From NCBI GenBank assembly GCA_001673575.1, contig LZME01000116.1:44087-108086 (forward strand): 64,000 nucleotides of DNA, given 5' to 3'. Made by a program: the position numbers and the translations under genes. Below are positions 908-5,951 of this stretch, piece after piece. Under the pieces are notes generated by a model. The model saw only the letters and a program-made list of their open reading frames with translations, was not told where the DNA came from and did no database searches. The DNA is from Mycolicibacter heraklionensis (lineage in GTDB: Bacteria; Actinomycetota; Actinomycetes; Mycobacteriales; Mycobacteriaceae). How positions within the stretch are numbered: position 1 is the first letter of the stretch; each line of letters starts with the position of its first letter.

Positions 908-1726
908 ATGCGGATTGCGTGTGCGCAGATACTCAGCGGCGCCGACCCGGCCGCGAATCTGCAACTGGTGACCGACTACACCCAACGGGCCGCCGACCAG
1001 GGGGCATCACTGGTGGTGTTCCCGGAAGCGACGATGTGTCGGTTTGGGGTGCCGCTGGGCCCGGTTGCCGAGCCGCTCGACGGGCCGTGGGCCACGCAGG
1101 TTCGCGAAATCGCCGCACGGGCTCAGATCACCGTGGTCGCCGGGATGTTCGCCCCGGCCGATGATGGCCGCGTCACCAACACGTTGTTGGCGGTCGGCCC
1201 CGGAACCGACACGCACTATCACAAGGTCCACCTCTACGACGCCTTCGGTTTCACCGAATCACGCACGGTGGCACCGGGATTCGAGCCGGTGGTGATCGAT
1301 ATCAACGGCGTCGGTGTCGGGTTGTCGACCTGTTATGACATCCGGTTCCCGGCGCTGTACACCGAACTGGCCGACCGCGGCGCACAGCTGATCGCGGTCT
1401 GCGCCTCGTGGGGCGCCGGCCCCGGGAAGCTGTCCCAGTGGGAGCTGTTGGCCCGGGCCCGGGCGCTGGATTCGACCAGCTACGTCGTGGCGGTAGGGCA
1501 GGCCGACCCAGGCGTTCCGGAGGATTCCTCGGGCGCGCCGACCGGGGTGGGCCACAGCATGATCGCCTCGCCATGGGGTGAGGTGATCGCCGCGGCCGGC
1601 GCATCGCCGCAGCTACTGGTCTGCGACATCGACCTCGGCGCGGTCTCGGCCGCCCGCCGGACGCTGGCTGTGTTGAGCAATCGTGCGACCTTCCTTCAGG
1701 TCGGTAAGGCAGAATCGCGCGGGTGA
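908..1726 (+). CDS. Carbon-nitrogen hydrolase (nitrilase superfamily amidase, Rv0480c-like)
   Basis: This 272-residue enzyme of the nitrilase superfamily hydrolyses a non-peptide C-N bond. The nearest described group is the Nit1/deaminated-glutathione amidase branch, but the substrate is not proven. The catalytic triad is visible: Glu40 in VVFPEATMC, Lys106 in HYHKVHLYDAFGF and Cys142 in LSTCYDIRFP. There is no signal peptide, so it is cytoplasmic. The GTGA at its end gives a 4-base overlap with the next gene, suggesting translational coupling. Full length for the family and syntenic with Rv0480c. Family assignment is firm; substrate is inference. Confidence 0.92.
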   Translation: MRIACAQILSGADPAANLQLVTDYTQRAADQGASLVVFPEATMCRFGVPLGPVAEPLDGPWATQVREIAARAQITVVAGMFAPADDGRVTNTLLAVGPGTDTHYHKVHLYDAFGFTESRTVAPGFEPVVIDINGVGVGLSTCYDIRFPALYTELADRGAQLIAVCASWGAGPGKLSQWELLARARALDSTSYVVAVGQADPGVPEDSSGAPTGVGHSMIASPWGEVIAAAGASPQLLVCDIDLGAVSAARRTLAVLSNRATFLQVGKAESRG

Positions 1727-2787
1727 GCAATCCGCCCGGACCTCCCCACGGCGAGTCACCCTGGGCTCGCCCCGCCGACAAACCCGAAACGCAAGACGGC
1801 GCTACGCCGTCTCGTCCACCGGAGCCGTCCGCGTCGCCCACCCAGCAGATGCCGGCTGGCGGTCGTGAAGAGCCCACCACCCGAATCCCCGCGGCGCCCG
1901 CACAGCCCCCCATGCCGCCGCAGGCCCCGCCGCCCTCGCAGGCCGCCGTGCCGCCGCCCACGAACCCGGTGCCGCAGCCGCCCCCCGCGCCCGCCGGCGA
2001 GGCGCCTACCACCGTGATCGAAGCCCCGGCGGCCCCGTCACGGTCGGCTTCGGTGCTGCGTGACCCGCTGGCCCTGGTCCTGATCCTGGTCACGGTGATC
2101 GCGTTGGCGCTGGCCGGGGTGATCGGCGCCGAACTGATCGCCCGCCGTATCGGTGACAGCAAGGTGGCCAAGGCAACCGAGTGCGTGGTGAACGACAAGG
2201 CCAGCGCCTCGTTCGGGGTGACGCCGCCGTTTCTGTGGCAGCACATCACCGGCAACTACACCAACATCTCCATCCACACTGCGGGCAACCAGGTCAAAGA
2301 CGCCAAGCAGATGACCGCCGACCTGAGCATCTCCGATGTCGATCTGCACGGCACCGGCGACTCGCGGGGCACCATCGGTTCCCTGCAGGCGACGCTGACC
2401 TGGCCGTCCGCCGGAATCAAAGAGACCGTGCAGAACATGGTGCCGATCCTGGGCAACCTGGTCTCCGACCTCAAGACCAATGCACAAGACGGCACCGTCG
2501 AGCTGCGCGGTGCGTTTGGTCTGGCCACCGTCGTGGTCAAGCCCGAAGTCGTCAACGGCGGCCTGTCCCTGCAGGTGCAGAAGCTGACCGGCCTGGGCGC
2601 CCTGACCCTGCCGCGAGAGTCGCTGCAGCCCGAGTTGGACCGGTTCGCCTCGGAGCTGACCAAGCGTTATCCGCTCGGTCTGCGCGCCGACAGCATCGAG
2701 GTCACCGAGACCGGTGTGGTGGCGCGGTTCTCCACCCGTAACGCCTCCATTCCGCGGACGGATGACCCCTGCTTCGCTCATCTGTAA
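1723..2787 (+). CDS. DUF2993 (LmeA-type) membrane protein with proline-rich N terminus
   Basis: This 354-residue protein has three parts. Residues 1 to about 105 are a low-complexity, Pro/Ala-rich cytoplasmic region. Residues about 113-135 form one membrane segment (LALVLILVTVIALALAGVIG). The rest is a periplasmic DUF2993 domain beginning near TECVVNDKASASFG. The best known member of that family, LmeA, acts in mycobacterial lipoglycan metabolism, but that role cannot be transferred automatically. The GTG start at 1723 overlaps the nitrilase stop. Equivalent to Rv0479c. A shorter paralogue follows 9 bases downstream, so the two probably form one transcript. Confidence 0.85.
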   Translation: MSNPPGPPHGESPWARPADKPETQDGATPSRPPEPSASPTQQMPAGGREEPTTRIPAAPAQPPMPPQAPPPSQAAVPPPTNPVPQPPPAPAGEAPTTVIEAPAAPSRSASVLRDPLALVLILVTVIALALAGVIGAELIARRIGDSKVAKATECVVNDKASASFGVTPPFLWQHITGNYTNISIHTAGNQVKDAKQMTADLSISDVDLHGTGDSRGTIGSLQATLTWPSAGIKETVQNMVPILGNLVSDLKTNAQDGTVELRGAFGLATVVVKPEVVNGGLSLQVQKLTGLGALTLPRESLQPELDRFASELTKRYPLGLRADSIEVTETGVVARFSTRNASIPRTDDPCFAHL

Positions 2788-2796
2788 CCTTGCACA

Positions 2797-3561
2797 ATGA
2801 GCGCACCCGGACCCACACATCGGTTTTCCGGCCTGCCGGCGATCATGCTGGCCTTGACCGCGGTGCTCGCAATAGCACTGGTCGGGATGCTCGGCGGTGA
2901 GCTTTACGCCCGCCACCGGGCGAACAGCCTGGTCGCCGAAGCCGTCCAATGCGAGGCGCAGGACAGCGCCACCGTGTCCTTCGGGACCACGCCCCCGGTG
3001 CTGGCGCAGTACTTCAACGGCGAGTACTCCCACATCTCGGTCAAGACCGCGGGCAACCAGATCCGGCAGGCCAAGGGCATGCAGCTCGATCTGGACATCC
3101 GCAACGTGCGGCTGAACAAGGGTGCTTCGGACTCCAAGGGCACCATCGGGTCCTTGGATGGAACCATCACCTGGCCCGCGGACGGCATCAAGCAGTCGAT
3201 TCAGGAAGTGGTGCCGGTGATCGGCAGCATCGTCACCGGAAAGGTCACCACCGACCCGGGCGCCGGCACCGTGGAGCTCAAGGGCCTGCTCAACAAGGCC
3301 GTCGTCAAGCCGCAGATCGTGAACAACGGGCTGCAGCTTCAGGTGGTCGACCTCGAGGCGCTGGGCCACGATCTGGACACCGACACCGTGCAGCGTAACC
3401 TCAACGACCTGACCGGGAAGGTGACAGGAGACCTTCCGCTGGGAATCCACATCGACAGCTCGCAAGTCACCGATTCCGGTGTGGTGGTCAAGTTTTCGAC
3501 GCGCGACGCCGCCATTCCGTCTTCGTCGTCTTCGTCGAACGGGTGCTTCGACTCGCTGTAG
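2797..3561 (+). CDS. DUF2993 (LmeA-type) membrane protein, second tandem copy
   Basis: This 254-residue paralogue of the preceding gene lacks the long proline-rich tail. A short N-terminus leads into a membrane segment at about residues 13-35 (IMLALTAVLAIALVGMLGGELYA), then a periplasmic DUF2993 domain. Shared landmarks with the upstream gene include SFGxTPPxLxQxxxGxYxxISxxTAGNQ, SKGTIGSL and the closing VxxFSTRxASIP region, so this is a tandem duplication. The C-terminus ends in a serine run before a lone Cys (NGCFDSL); the upstream copy also ends with a Cys near its terminus. Function is unassigned. ATG start at 2797. Confidence 0.83.
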   Translation: MSAPGPTHRFSGLPAIMLALTAVLAIALVGMLGGELYARHRANSLVAEAVQCEAQDSATVSFGTTPPVLAQYFNGEYSHISVKTAGNQIRQAKGMQLDLDIRNVRLNKGASDSKGTIGSLDGTITWPADGIKQSIQEVVPVIGSIVTGKVTTDPGAGTVELKGLLNKAVVKPQIVNNGLQLQVVDLEALGHDLDTDTVQRNLNDLTGKVTGDLPLGIHIDSSQVTDSGVVVKFSTRDAAIPSSSSSSNGCFDSL

Positions 3562-3564
3562 GCG

Positions 3565-4059
3565 TCAGCTTCGGGTGAGCCGGAAATATCCGTAGAGCTG
3601 AGCGTCGGGGTCCGGACCGCGGTTGAACCCCGCGACCAGGATCAGGTCGTTGTTGAACCAACGCCGAAGCCCGCTGCCGCGTCCGTACACGCTGTATTCG
3701 ATGGCGAAGTCGCTCGAGAAACCGTCCGCCGTCAGCCCATAGCCGGACGGGGCGAGGCACGGCCCGACGAAGTGCCGCAATGCATCCCAGACCAGCGGTG
3801 CCCCGGAAGCGAGAAACCGTTCGTCAGCGACGCGGTAGCCGGGCTGTATGCCGTCGGCGAACTCCCGCAACCGCTTCTCGGCACCGGCGTGATCGGGCAC
3901 CGATGTGACGGGGATGTCGGTGCTCTGGGCGTACACCCGAATGTCCCCCAGCGCGGGCGGCGCAGCGCTTCGGTACTGCCAGAAGCCGTATCCGGCAAGG
4001 ACTATGACGACTCCCACGAGAACCGCTGCGCTTATCACCATCGCCCTGTTTGCCTTCAT
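3565..4059 (-). CDS. Single-pass membrane protein, putative partner of the calpain-type protease
   Basis: I do not recognise this 164-residue protein as a named family. It begins MKANRAMVISAAV, has one membrane segment (about residues 7-28) and then an exported domain of roughly 135 residues. Only one Cys is present, in VGPCLAPSGYG. The ATG at 4059 overlaps the TGA of the upstream protease gene by 3 bases (ATGA), so the two are almost certainly co-transcribed and translationally coupled. A longer reading from 4197 is rejected because it would run through the protease C-terminus. An immunity, anchoring or inhibitor role is only inference from the coupling. Confidence 0.7.
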   Translation of the reverse strand: MKANRAMVISAAVLVGVVIVLAGYGFWQYRSAAPPALGDIRVYAQSTDIPVTSVPDHAGAEKRLREFADGIQPGYRVADERFLASGAPLVWDALRHFVGPCLAPSGYGLTADGFSSDFAIEYSVYGRGSGLRRWFNNDLILVAGFNRGPDPDAQLYGYFRLTRS

Positions 4060-5258
4060 CCGAGTGAACCGATGTTGACGCACGACATCGGGTGCGTGCC
4101 GAGCGGGCCGGGCAGCCCGGAGCCGATAAGGTCGCCGAGCCGAACGGTGACCAACGCCTCGGGGGTGTCGATCGGCGTGCCGGCATTGGTTTCCCACGGA
4201 TTCCGCAGGGTCACCACGGCATCGCTGCCGGTGCCGCTGATGCCTTCGACCACATACACGTGGCTTTGCGTCAACGGTGTTCCCTGCGGTGTCGTCGAGA
4301 TCGTCACCGGCTGATGATCGGCCAGGGCGCCGGAAATCGCTTGGTCGATATGCTGATTGGTGAACCAGACGCTCTCCGGGTTGATCACGGTGCCGCGGTT
4401 GCCGGTCAGCGCCTCCATCGCATCCTTGGCGTAGCCGCCCTGCCCGATCCCCACGTCATTGCCGAGGGCATCGGCCAGATCCCGTCCCGGATATTTGAGT
4501 TTCGCGTATGCCGACTCCAACACCGCCGGCCACAGCGCCGCATCCGGCCGGCCGTTGTCGAGCCAACTTGCACCGTTGTGTCTGATGTCGGTGCCGATGT
4601 CGGCCTGCGTGACATCGATGTGCTTCCACTCATGGCCGTCCCAGAGGGTGACACCGAAAGTCCCGGTCTGGTCGTCGAAATGAATGCGGTCTTTGATCCA
4701 TTGCGGGTTGGCGTTGGCGATGGCACCCATGGTGGCAACCAGATAACAGTCACCGACGCTGTCCTGTTTCACGTCCGCGGCGGTCGGGTCATGGGGGTAG
4801 AGATCTTTATCGGTCCACCGGCGTTCGTCGCCGAGGGTGTCGATCGGAGGAGCCAACGGCACACCGTCGCCCGTCGGATACCGCAGCGCCCGCAGCAGCC
4901 CCGTTCTGCTCGTGCTGTCCGCGGAGACCTCGTCTACCACCAGGTGGATCTCTCTGGCCTTGGTGGCGAGGAATGCCTGGAACTGCCGAGCGCCCGCCGG
5001 GGTGTCGAGGCCCCGTACGCCGTGGCGGGCAACGACGTCACTGATCTCGACCTCAATGGCGTCCAGGCGCCGACGCCCCCACACCGCCTTTCGGCACGCC
5101 CCACGCAGCGCCTCGACGAAAACGCGATCCACCTCGACAGCCGTCGCCAGGCGTTGCGCCAAATCCTGCTCGCGCGCACGCGCGGCATCGGCGAATGCAC
5201 CACGTACATCGGGCATAGCCGCAAAGGCTATCGGCGGTCTGCAGACTTGGGTAGTCAC
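4056..5258 (-). CDS. Calpain-type (C2) cysteine protease with mycobacterial helical N-terminal domain
   Basis: This is a predicted papain-fold protease of the calpain family, 400 residues from a GTG at 5258; an ATG at 5216 (residue 15) is also possible, and neither has a good Shine-Dalgarno. Residues 15 to about 125 are helical, rich in Ala/Arg/Asp, with RRLDAIEVEI and LDTPAGARQFQAFLATKAREI. They resemble the N-terminal domain I recall from mycobacterial DUF4226 proteins (moderate certainty). Residues about 150-395 are the protease domain: oxyanion Gln165, catalytic Cys171 in VGDCYL, the calpain landmark LWPAVLESAYAKLKYPG, His333 in QSHVYVVEG and Asn353-Pro-Trp355 in LRNPW. The full triad is present. 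No classical signal peptide. It starts 9 bases after deoC and overlaps the small membrane-protein gene. Confidence 0.85.
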   Translation of the reverse strand: MTTQVCRPPIAFAAMPDVRGAFADAARAREQDLAQRLATAVEVDRVFVEALRGACRKAVWGRRRLDAIEVEISDVVARHGVRGLDTPAGARQFQAFLATKAREIHLVVDEVSADSTSRTGLLRALRYPTGDGVPLAPPIDTLGDERRWTDKDLYPHDPTAADVKQDSVGDCYLVATMGAIANANPQWIKDRIHFDDQTGTFGVTLWDGHEWKHIDVTQADIGTDIRHNGASWLDNGRPDAALWPAVLESAYAKLKYPGRDLADALGNDVGIGQGGYAKDAMEALTGNRGTVINPESVWFTNQHIDQAISGALADHQPVTISTTPQGTPLTQSHVYVVEGISGTGSDAVVTLRNPWETNAGTPIDTPEALVTVRLGDLIGSGLPGPLGTHPMSCVNIGSLG

Positions 5259-5267
5259 CCAGCCGGG

Positions 5268-5951
5268 CTACACCAGTCCGTCGAGCACCGCCCGAGTGCC
5301 GGACAGCCCCAGCCGAGTCGCCCCGGCCGCGATCATGGCCAGCGCATCGTCGGCACTGCGGATACCGCCGCTGGCCTTGACCCCTAACCGGCCATCGACC
5401 GTGTCGGCCATCAGTGCCACCGCGTGCACGCTCGCCCCGCCGGACGGATGAAATCCGGTGGAGGTCTTCACGAAATCCGCGCCGGCGTCTTCGGCGACCC
5501 GGCAGGCGGCGACCAGGGCGGCGTCGCCGGCGAACTCCAGCAGCGCGGCGGATTCCACGATCACCTTGAGCACCGCCCGGGGCAGCGCGGCGCGCACGGC
5601 GGCGATGTCGGCGCTCACCGCGGCCAAATCACCTGCCAGTGCCGCGCCGACGTCGATGACCATGTCGATCTCGGCCGCCCCATCGGCTGCGGCCAGTGCG
5701 GCCTCCTGGGCTTTGACCACCGACCGATGCTTGCCGGATGGGAAGCCCGCGACCGCGGCGATCGGGACGCCGGAGGGGTTGGCCCCAGCCGCGATAGCCA
5801 CCATTGACGGCGATACGCACACCGCGGCCACACCGAGTTCGGCGGCTTCGGCGACGACGGCGACCACCTGCTCGGCGGTGGCTTCGGGTTTGAGCAGGGT
5901 GTGGTCGACCAGTTTGGCCACCTGGTCGCGGCCCCATCGGGTGGTGGGCAT
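5268..5951 (-). CDS. deoC: Deoxyribose-phosphate aldolase
   Basis: DeoC reversibly splits 2-deoxyribose-5-phosphate into glyceraldehyde-3-phosphate and acetaldehyde, in cytoplasmic deoxynucleoside catabolism. The 227-residue protein is a class I aldolase. The Schiff-base lysine is Lys162 in VKTSTGFHP, with Lys192 in VKASGGIR and Asp97 in EIDMVIDVG completing the catalytic set; the opening [12 protein letters not shown] is typical. The ATG at 5951 is chosen because it forms an ATGA overlap with the upstream stop and matches homologue starts, whereas the open frame runs back to 6026. It corresponds to Rv0478, within the hbhA-deoC gene string. Confidence 0.96.

What the first reader, a model, noticed from the sequence alone, without database searches (positions are those of the whole stretch)
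3565..5258. Calpain-type protease with a mycobacterial N-terminal domain, coupled to a small membrane protein
The 400-residue protein at 4056-5258 has an intact calpain triad (Cys171, His333, Asn353) and the conserved LWPAVLESAYAK segment, fused behind a helical domain that resembles DUF4226-type mycobacterial proteins. Its stop overlaps the ATG of a 164-residue single-pass membrane protein. Protease plus overlapping small membrane gene is the layout of a toxin/effector with an immunity or anchoring partner. It sits directly after deoC, where M. tuberculosis has no such genes. Calpains are rare in bacteria and none with this partner is known to me.
Basis: partly seen in the sequence, partly recalled or inferred. 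Interest (0 to 1): 0.72.

Follow-up and report, generated by a model that had tools for sequence, protein, structure and literature searches.

The report
Likely calpain toxin and immunity pair
Next to an ordinary metabolic gene, this mycobacterium carries what looks like a secreted protein-cutting toxin of the calpain family, followed directly by the membrane-bound protein that probably protects the cell from it; related two-gene pairs turn up in distant bacteria.

Summary
The gene at 4056-5258(-) encodes DUF4226 plus a calpain domain with Cys171/His333/Asn353 intact; its stop overlaps (ATGA) the start of a 164-residue single-pass membrane protein.

Best reading: a type VII (ESX) polymorphic toxin with its immunity protein. 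In 297 genus genomes, 17 carry this calpain and all 17 have the partner immediately downstream. The same calpain domain sits behind DUF4226, EspC or WXG100-like N-termini. The partner is duplicated in one genome, orphaned in another, and diverges about 1.7 times faster than the calpain. Calpains of Sphingomonas and Lysobacteraceae have a downstream gene whose profile matches the mycobacterial partner at 97.4%, against at most 0.4% in 11 scrambled or reversed controls. All 39 partner rows examined start with a hydrophobic anchor or signal-like stretch, so neutralisation probably happens outside the cytoplasm.

Toxicity, secretion and inhibition are inferred, not shown. T7SS polymorphic toxins are known; new are the calpain-partner module and DUF4226 as a proposed ESX carrier, as far as the searchable papers go.

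The parts
4056..5258 (-). DUF4226-calpain gene, 400 codons from GTG 5258; possible ATG start at 5216 (386 aa)
4881..5204 (-). DUF4226 N-terminal helical domain (residues 19-126), proposed ESX/T7SS export domain
   Evidence: Pfam 1.5e-31; two long helices in the model, at low to middling confidence there; same calpain domain behind EspC or WXG100-like domains elsewhere
4059..4817 (-). calpain (Peptidase_C2) catalytic domain, proposed toxin domain
   Evidence: Pfam 3.2e-16 over residues 152-356, Foldseek to calpain-9/-1 cores probability 1.00
4746..4748 (-). catalytic Cys171 codon
   Evidence: alignment A2, invariant 16/16; sequence
4260..4262 (-). catalytic His333 codon
   Evidence: alignment A2, invariant 16/16
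4200..4202 (-). catalytic Asn353 codon
   Evidence: alignment A2, invariant 16/16
4056..4059 (-). ATGA overlap of the toxin stop and partner start
   Evidence: partner start -4 to +15 nt from the calpain stop in 17 of 17 mycobacterial loci
3565..4059 (-). proposed immunity protein, 164 aa, N-terminal membrane anchor plus alpha/beta domain
3967..4047 (-). transmembrane helix of the partner (about residues 5-31)
   Evidence: 19-residue Kyte-Doolittle mean 2.53; helix 5-31 in the model

Best explanation
The pair is a polymorphic toxin-immunity module. DUF4226 is an export domain used by a type VII (ESX) secretion system. It carries a C-terminal calpain cysteine protease out of the cell and into a neighbouring bacterium (less likely a eukaryotic host), where it cuts proteins exposed in the cell envelope. 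The partner is translated from the overlapping ATGA, sits in the inner membrane with its soluble domain facing outward, and binds the calpain domain to block it, protecting the producer and its kin from protease that reaches the periplasmic space. Shown here: domain content, intact triad, strict linkage, N-terminal domain exchange, an orphan and a duplicated partner, homology to partners with signal-like starts in other phyla. Inferred: secretion by ESX, toxicity, direct inhibition, outward topology, bacterial target.
For: Linkage: with profiles, calpain in 17 of 297 genus genomes, partner in 20, both in 17, calpain alone in 0, directly downstream on the same strand in 17 of 17. The profile was built from these very genes; the window partner as a single query, free of that circle, finds a match in 13 of the 17 calpain genomes and 1 of the other 280 (Fisher p 2e-18). 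Domain exchange: of 16 calpain proteins, 3 carry DUF4226, 9 match WXG100 and 2 match EspC at E 0.05; plus an EspC-calpain-partner set on a M. aubagnense plasmid. A second C-terminal domain, Abhydrolase_8, also occurs behind DUF4226 and behind a WXG100-like domain. On the calpain tree the DUF4226 and EspC groups lie in a well-supported set of 8 together with two rows that I labelled WXG. Immunity signs: tandem partners in L067, orphan partner in G094, whose genome has no calpain match; partner distances a median 1.67 times those of the calpain, mirror-tree r 0.85 or 0.91 over 15 pairs, 0 of 5000 permutations as high. Cross-phylum: A1 vs A4 97.4%, E 1.3e-11, against at most 0.4% in 10 column shuffles and one reversal and 0.1% for two unrelated, shallow alignments; L121, held out of both profiles, is hit by both. 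Export: 38 of 39 partner rows have an N-terminal 19-residue Kyte-Doolittle mean of 1.6 or more, the 39th 1.54, against 36 of 146 mycobacterial and 7 of 40 proteobacterial control genes of 100-200 aa. ESX link: one of six DUF4226 genes of this genome lies divergent to the first gene of an ESX-type locus.
Against: The canonical T7SS YxxxD/E signal is hardly enriched in DUF4226: 12 of 38 domains against 19% in shuffles (binomial tail 0.049); WxG in the turn in 11 of 38 (turn not located in 9, counted as misses). Only 2 of 9 WXG100 matches pass the curated cut-off, and L058 and L068 have none. No small WXG100 companion gene lies beside the window gene, unlike PEST cassettes. Two of the three partner-only genomes (G210, G221) are marginal, partial hits, so only one orphan is firm. 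In four calpain genomes (G141, G204, G217, G228) the single-sequence search missed the partner; they joined by position and alignment. Outward topology rests on hydropathy and a slight charge bias (2 K/R before, 1 after). One of 16 non-mycobacterial loci (L126) shows no partner. The order-level calpains outside the genus had no partner hit.
Confidence: 0.7

Rival explanations
1. The partner is not an inhibitor but a membrane anchor, activator or assembly factor that places the protease at the envelope for a housekeeping processing job.
For: Strict adjacency and overlapping or abutting genes fit a two-subunit enzyme equally well.
Against: Patchy presence (17 of 297 genomes), an orphan partner in G094 and tandem partners in L067, faster partner divergence, exchanged N-terminal domains and carriage on a plasmid fit a housekeeping enzyme poorly.
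Confidence: 0.15
2. The protease is an ESX effector aimed at eukaryotic cells (amoebae or animals), with the partner protecting the producer before export.
For: ESX systems are known for host interaction (established knowledge); EspC-type N-termini occur on some copies; several named carriers (M. triplex, M. colombiense, M. arosiense, M. houstonense) are recalled as species from clinical samples.
Against: Relatives with a matching partner occur in Sphingomonas, Lysobacter and Luteimonas; one carrier plasmid comes from mine sediment; an orphan partner with a membrane anchor suggests protection against incoming toxin. None of this excludes a host role.
Confidence: 0.25
3. The DUF4226-calpain protein is an intracellular toxin-antitoxin or phage-defence protease.
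For: The two-gene overlapping layout resembles toxin-antitoxin operons.
Against: All 39 partner rows examined have an N-terminal hydrophobic anchor or signal-like stretch; no match in phage records for the calpain domain and no PHROG match. PADLOC was not run.
Confidence: 0.06

Closest known systems
PEST cassettes of Mycobacterium abscessus prophages (PMC10654092: section 8 part 1 and passages read; PMC8092301: passages read)
   Same: ESX-type N-terminal domain, variable C-terminal toxin domain, adjacent immunity gene that follows the toxin domain; one immunity protein predicted as a lipoprotein, likely cell wall associated; toxicity without the immunity gene reported in M. smegmatis.
   Different: PEST has companion WXG100 genes and sits in prophages, almost all of the abscessus-chelonae complex. 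Here the N-terminus is DUF4226, no companion gene adjoins and the toxin domain is a calpain; the word calpain does not occur in the main text of either paper.
Bacterial calpains, including WXG100-calpain of Segniliparus and Herpetosiphon (PMC4631099: passages read)
   Same: C2 peptidase behind a WXG100 domain; the paper says such proteins may be toxins, and its reviewer calls them likely T7SS toxins.
   Different: The text has no word beginning mycobacter and no DUF4226 among its three DUF mentions; no partner family is described in the passages seen.
Tox-PL1 and Imm35 of polymorphic toxin systems (PMC3482391: passages read)
   Same: Papain-like protease toxin behind WXG domains with a dedicated, possibly protease-inhibiting immunity protein.
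   Different: Word calpain absent from the held part of the text; the window partner has no Pfam match at E 1; that Pfam holds an Imm35 model is recalled, not checked.
Interbacterial cysteine protease toxin acting on GyrB/ParE (PMC12136450: start of the abstract and passages read)
   Same: Cysteine protease toxin of bacteria neutralised by an immunity protein.
   Different: Its targets are cytoplasmic; calpain is mentioned only for comparison. Here the partner has a membrane anchor.

Membership tests
Calpain (Peptidase C2) family | C2 catalytic domain above the curated cut-off with Cys/His/Asn triad and oxyanion Gln | tested here: met
   59.7 bits vs 23.8 cut-off; triad and Gln165 invariant 16/16; fold match to calpain cores
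Calpain (Peptidase C2) family | proteolytic activity | not testable with these tools
   needs an assay
DUF4226 (PF10774) | domain match above cut-off | tested here: met
   109.4 bits vs 23.5
Type VII (ESX) secreted substrate | N-terminal helical domain that takes the place of known ESX-type domains (EspC, WXG100) | tested here: met
   EspC over its cut-off on L059, L060 and L170, WXG100 over its cut-off on L062 and L066 in front of the same calpain domain
Type VII (ESX) secreted substrate | YxxxD/E signal after the hairpin | tested here: inconclusive
   present in the window protein (YPTGD) but only in 12 of 38 DUF4226 domains, 19% expected by shuffling
Type VII (ESX) secreted substrate | ESX-dependent secretion | not testable with these tools
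   ESX machinery is present in the genome: three EccC matches over the cut-off
Polymorphic toxin system | conserved N-terminal export domain with variable C-terminal domains | tested here: met
   35 DUF4226 tails fall into 11 sequence clusters (taken from best-hit loci, not a full census; that the other tails are toxins is not shown)
Polymorphic toxin system | adjacent gene that follows the toxin domain, not the N-terminal domain | tested here: met
   partner beside the calpain behind all three N-terminal types
Polymorphic toxin system | protection by the adjacent gene | not testable with these tools
   needs expression tests
PEST cassette | companion WXG100 gene and prophage location | tested here: not met
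   neighbours are deoC and LmeA-type genes; no phage-record match for the calpain domain
Mog1/DcrB-like fold (partner) | significant structural match | tested here: inconclusive

The most novel reading that the evidence does not exclude
Calpains of this subfamily form a toxin-immunity module shared across phyla that works at the envelope of the target cell. The module comes with its own exported calpain-inhibitor family and is plugged onto whatever secretion domain each lineage uses: DUF4226, EspC or WXG100 in mycobacteria, another route in proteobacteria. DUF4226 then marks an overlooked family of ESX polymorphic toxins, whose members would, from recalled and untested gene names, include Rv0025/Rv0026 of M. 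tuberculosis.
Probability: 0.5. Interest if true: 0.75.

Novelty: new variant of a known kind. Interest (0 to 1): 0.62.

Why it matters
It would give a function to DUF4226, a name that no paper of the 5.39 million searched holds. It would give a group of bacterial calpains a concrete and testable job. It would also supply a candidate family of dedicated calpain inhibitors found in both actinobacteria and proteobacteria. In my judgement an envelope-acting protease toxin with a membrane-anchored immunity protein would be an unusual weapon among mycobacteria.

Tried and rejected
Considered and set aside: calpain as a chance ORF (rejected by Pfam, conserved triad and relatives). The deoC-calpain neighbourhood as ancient: 0 of 11 deoC loci in other genomes carry the pair there; in 6 deoC abuts an LmeA-type gene and in 5 other genes intervene. 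Pfam was run on the intervening genes of only two: an isochorismatase in L157 and PAD_porph in L165. YxxxD/E as proof of T7SS export: too weak. Partner fold: only weak Mog1/DcrB/START-like matches. Partner elsewhere in the order: 4 of 348 genomes, all of the same genus; 26 calpain-like loci outside the genus (L131-L156) gave no partner hit, but each holds only about 1.5 kb of flank. NCBIfam gave nothing for either protein, PHROGs likewise. Phage records: no match for the calpain domain; plasmids: two records, M. aubagnense (followed up) and Calothrix at 24.8% (not followed up). An XVIPCD signal (type IV effectors of Xanthomonadaceae, recalled) was not among the Pfam hits of eight proteobacterial calpains; I did not check that Pfam models it, so their delivery route stays unknown. 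The tree label count (2 changes for WXG) includes the step between phyla, and 2 is also the least possible for three N-terminal types among the mycobacterial rows; L058 and L068 were labelled WXG by my reading of their place and sequence, without a Pfam match. Literature searches on calpain with polymorphic toxin, type VII secretion, immunity protein/type VI, interbacterial/periplasm, Lysobacter, WXG100, and on C2 family cysteine protease listed no paper that describes this pair, judging from titles, starts of abstracts and passages; most listed papers were not opened, and subscription papers and preprints are mostly not in that library.

Full report
What is there. On the minus strand, 9 bases beyond the deoC stop, a 400-codon gene (4056-5258) encodes a DUF4226 domain followed by a calpain domain; its stop overlaps the start of a 164-residue gene (3565-4059) as ATGA. 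Pfam scores are far above the cut-offs (DUF4226 109.4 vs 23.5 bits; Peptidase_C2 59.7 vs 23.8). The triad Cys171/His333/Asn353 and Gln165 are invariant in the 16 aligned sequences. The model (mean pLDDT 69, low at the N-terminus and in the linker) matches human calpain cores at Foldseek probability 1.00. The start may be the ATG at 5216, judging by four of five paralogues. The nearest named relatives of the calpain are Mycolicibacter heraklionensis and kin at 90-91%, so the window probably comes from a Mycolicibacter-like species; this is inference.

The N-terminal half. The same genome holds six DUF4226 proteins. Over 38 distinct DUF4226 domains in the loci I held, the 35 tails of 60 residues or more form 11 sequence clusters, among them calpain and an alpha/beta hydrolase (Abhydrolase_8). 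One DUF4226 gene of this genome lies divergent to the start of an ESX-type locus (only EccC was tested by profile, the other ESX genes are read from size and order). In G016, at the matching place, a DUF4226 protein is followed by an ATGA-overlapping gene with a lipoprotein-like start. The usual YxxxD/E export motif is hardly enriched (12 of 38, 19% expected), so the export role rests mainly on domain exchange.

Domain exchange. Of 16 mycobacterial calpain proteins scanned, 3 carry DUF4226, 9 match WXG100 and 2 match EspC at E 0.05. Seen singly, WXG100 passes its cut-off in 2 of the 9 (L062, L066), EspC passes in L059 and L060, and L058 and L068 match neither. A plasmid of M. aubagnense has a further EspC-calpain (over the cut-off), followed 23 bases later by an annotated gene that matches the partner profile. 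On the calpain tree, rooted on the proteobacterial rows, the DUF4226 group (83/98) and the EspC group (100/99) lie in a well-supported set of 8 (98/96) with L058 and L062, while the other WXG-labelled rows lie outside; three N-terminal types need at least two changes, and the tree shows two. The simplest reading is that a WXG100-type calpain acquired new N-termini.

The partner. With profiles, 17 of 297 genus genomes have the calpain, 20 the partner, 17 both and none the calpain alone. The partner profile was made from these genes, so the Fisher value of 6e-25 is partly circular; the window partner alone as query finds 13 of the 17 and 1 of the other 280 (p 2e-18). In all 17 the partner is directly downstream, at -4 to +15 bases. 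Of the three partner-only genomes, G094 is a strong, nearly full-length hit without a calpain match in the genome; G210 and G221 are marginal partial hits. L067 (the contig matches M. iranicum AT2.18, L122) has two partners in tandem. Over 15 pairs partner distances follow calpain distances (r 0.85 or 0.91 depending on the L067 copy; 0 of 5000 permutations as high) at a median ratio of 1.67.

Other phyla. The named-genome scan gave 31 loci, 16 of them not mycobacterial: Sphingomonas, Lysobacteraceae and MAGs. 15 of the 16 have a small downstream gene matching profile A4, L126 does not. The 13 rows of A4 were taken by position from these loci, so their match is by construction; L111 (near-copy of L110), L114 and L121 were not in it. 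Profile-profile comparison of A4 with the mycobacterial partners gives 97.4%, E 1.3e-11. Ten column-shuffled versions and one reversed version give at most 0.4%, and two unrelated but shallow alignments 0.1%. The mycobacterial profile alone hits L113 (1.8e-6), L121 (9.9e-5) and L125 (6.1e-4) below 1e-3, and the proteobacterial one hits mycobacterial partners in six different loci, best 1.1e-6 (E-values for a small search space, and most cross-pairs were not hit at this level). Of 39 partner rows, near-copies included, 38 have an N-terminal hydrophobic mean of 1.6 or more and the last 1.54; two match the lipobox pattern, several more look like one by eye. Control genes of similar length reach 1.6 in 36 of 146 (mycobacterial loci) and 7 of 40 (proteobacterial loci). 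A signal-like or anchored inhibitor in each lineage is the main reason to place the action outside the cytoplasm.

How it probably works. Shown: architecture, active-site residues, strict linkage, domain exchange, an orphan and a duplicated partner, distant homologues. Inferred: DUF4226 takes the protein out through ESX; the calpain enters the envelope of a neighbour and cuts exposed proteins; the partner, anchored with its domain outside, blocks it. Rivals are a two-subunit housekeeping protease, a eukaryote-directed effector, and an internal toxin-antitoxin pair; their evidence is given in their sections.

What is known. T7SS polymorphic toxins with immunity genes are established, including PEST cassettes in M. 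abscessus prophages with toxicity tested in M. smegmatis (PMC10654092, section 8 part 1 read, passages; PMC8092301, passages). WXG100-calpain fusions were noted in 2015 and called likely T7SS toxins by a reviewer (PMC4631099, passages). Papain-like toxin families with Imm35 are catalogued without the word calpain in the held text (PMC3482391, passages); a 2023 classification of papain-like proteinases has no DUF4226 and, in the passages seen, no bacterial toxin role for calpains (PMC10318531). I found no paper on this calpain-partner pair or on DUF4226. Hence a new variant of a known kind.

Place in the chromosome. The pair lies between deoC and an LmeA-type gene. In 11 other deoC loci it is absent; in 6 deoC abuts an LmeA-type gene, in 5 other genes sit there, consistent with a variable insertion site.

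Noticed in passing
L109 1258-3400 (M. hubeiense), just upstream of its calpain pair: A protein with a WXG100-like start (below the cut-off) and Abhydrolase_8 is followed at once by an LppA-family lipoprotein (Pfam: confined to pathogenic Mycobacterium), i.e. LppA sits in an immunity-like position.
   Followed up: partly
L077 3618-5344 (G016): A DUF4226 protein with a HHEERH-type tail overlaps by ATGA a gene starting like a lipoprotein, beside a 499-residue gene placed like eccB of an ESX locus: a second protease-like candidate with an exported partner.
   Followed up: partly
L168 13103-15175 (own genome, contig C127): A short DUF4226 protein (142 aa, almost no tail) is divergent to the first gene of an ESX-type locus; other genomes carry longer versions at the matching place.
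   Followed up: partly
L112 1702-3497 and relatives (Sphingomonas): Next to the calpain pair lie a Lipase_3 protein (just over its cut-off in L112) and a gene with a lipoprotein-like start, possibly another effector-immunity pair.
   Followed up: no
L113 2263-5594 (Luteimonas panaciterrae): Two calpain-partner pairs in tandem.
   Followed up: no
L115 about 3989-5380 and L124 about 3941-4738: The calpain frames of these two loci look altered towards their ends (match ends early, frame runs on over the partner in L115); possibly decayed toxins with partner still intact. Left as they are.
   Followed up: no
window 1723-3561: Two adjacent LmeA-type genes on the plus strand, an apparent tandem duplication.
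   Followed up: no
deoC-LmeA junction in L157, L158, L162, L163, L165: The site filled by the calpain pair here holds other genes in other genomes, such as an isochorismatase (L157) or a PAD_porph deiminase (L165).
   Followed up: partly
L132 and L149 (G486): Several calpain-like stretches within one open frame of about 9000 codons in another genus of the family; no partner hit in the 1.5 kb flanks held.
   Followed up: no
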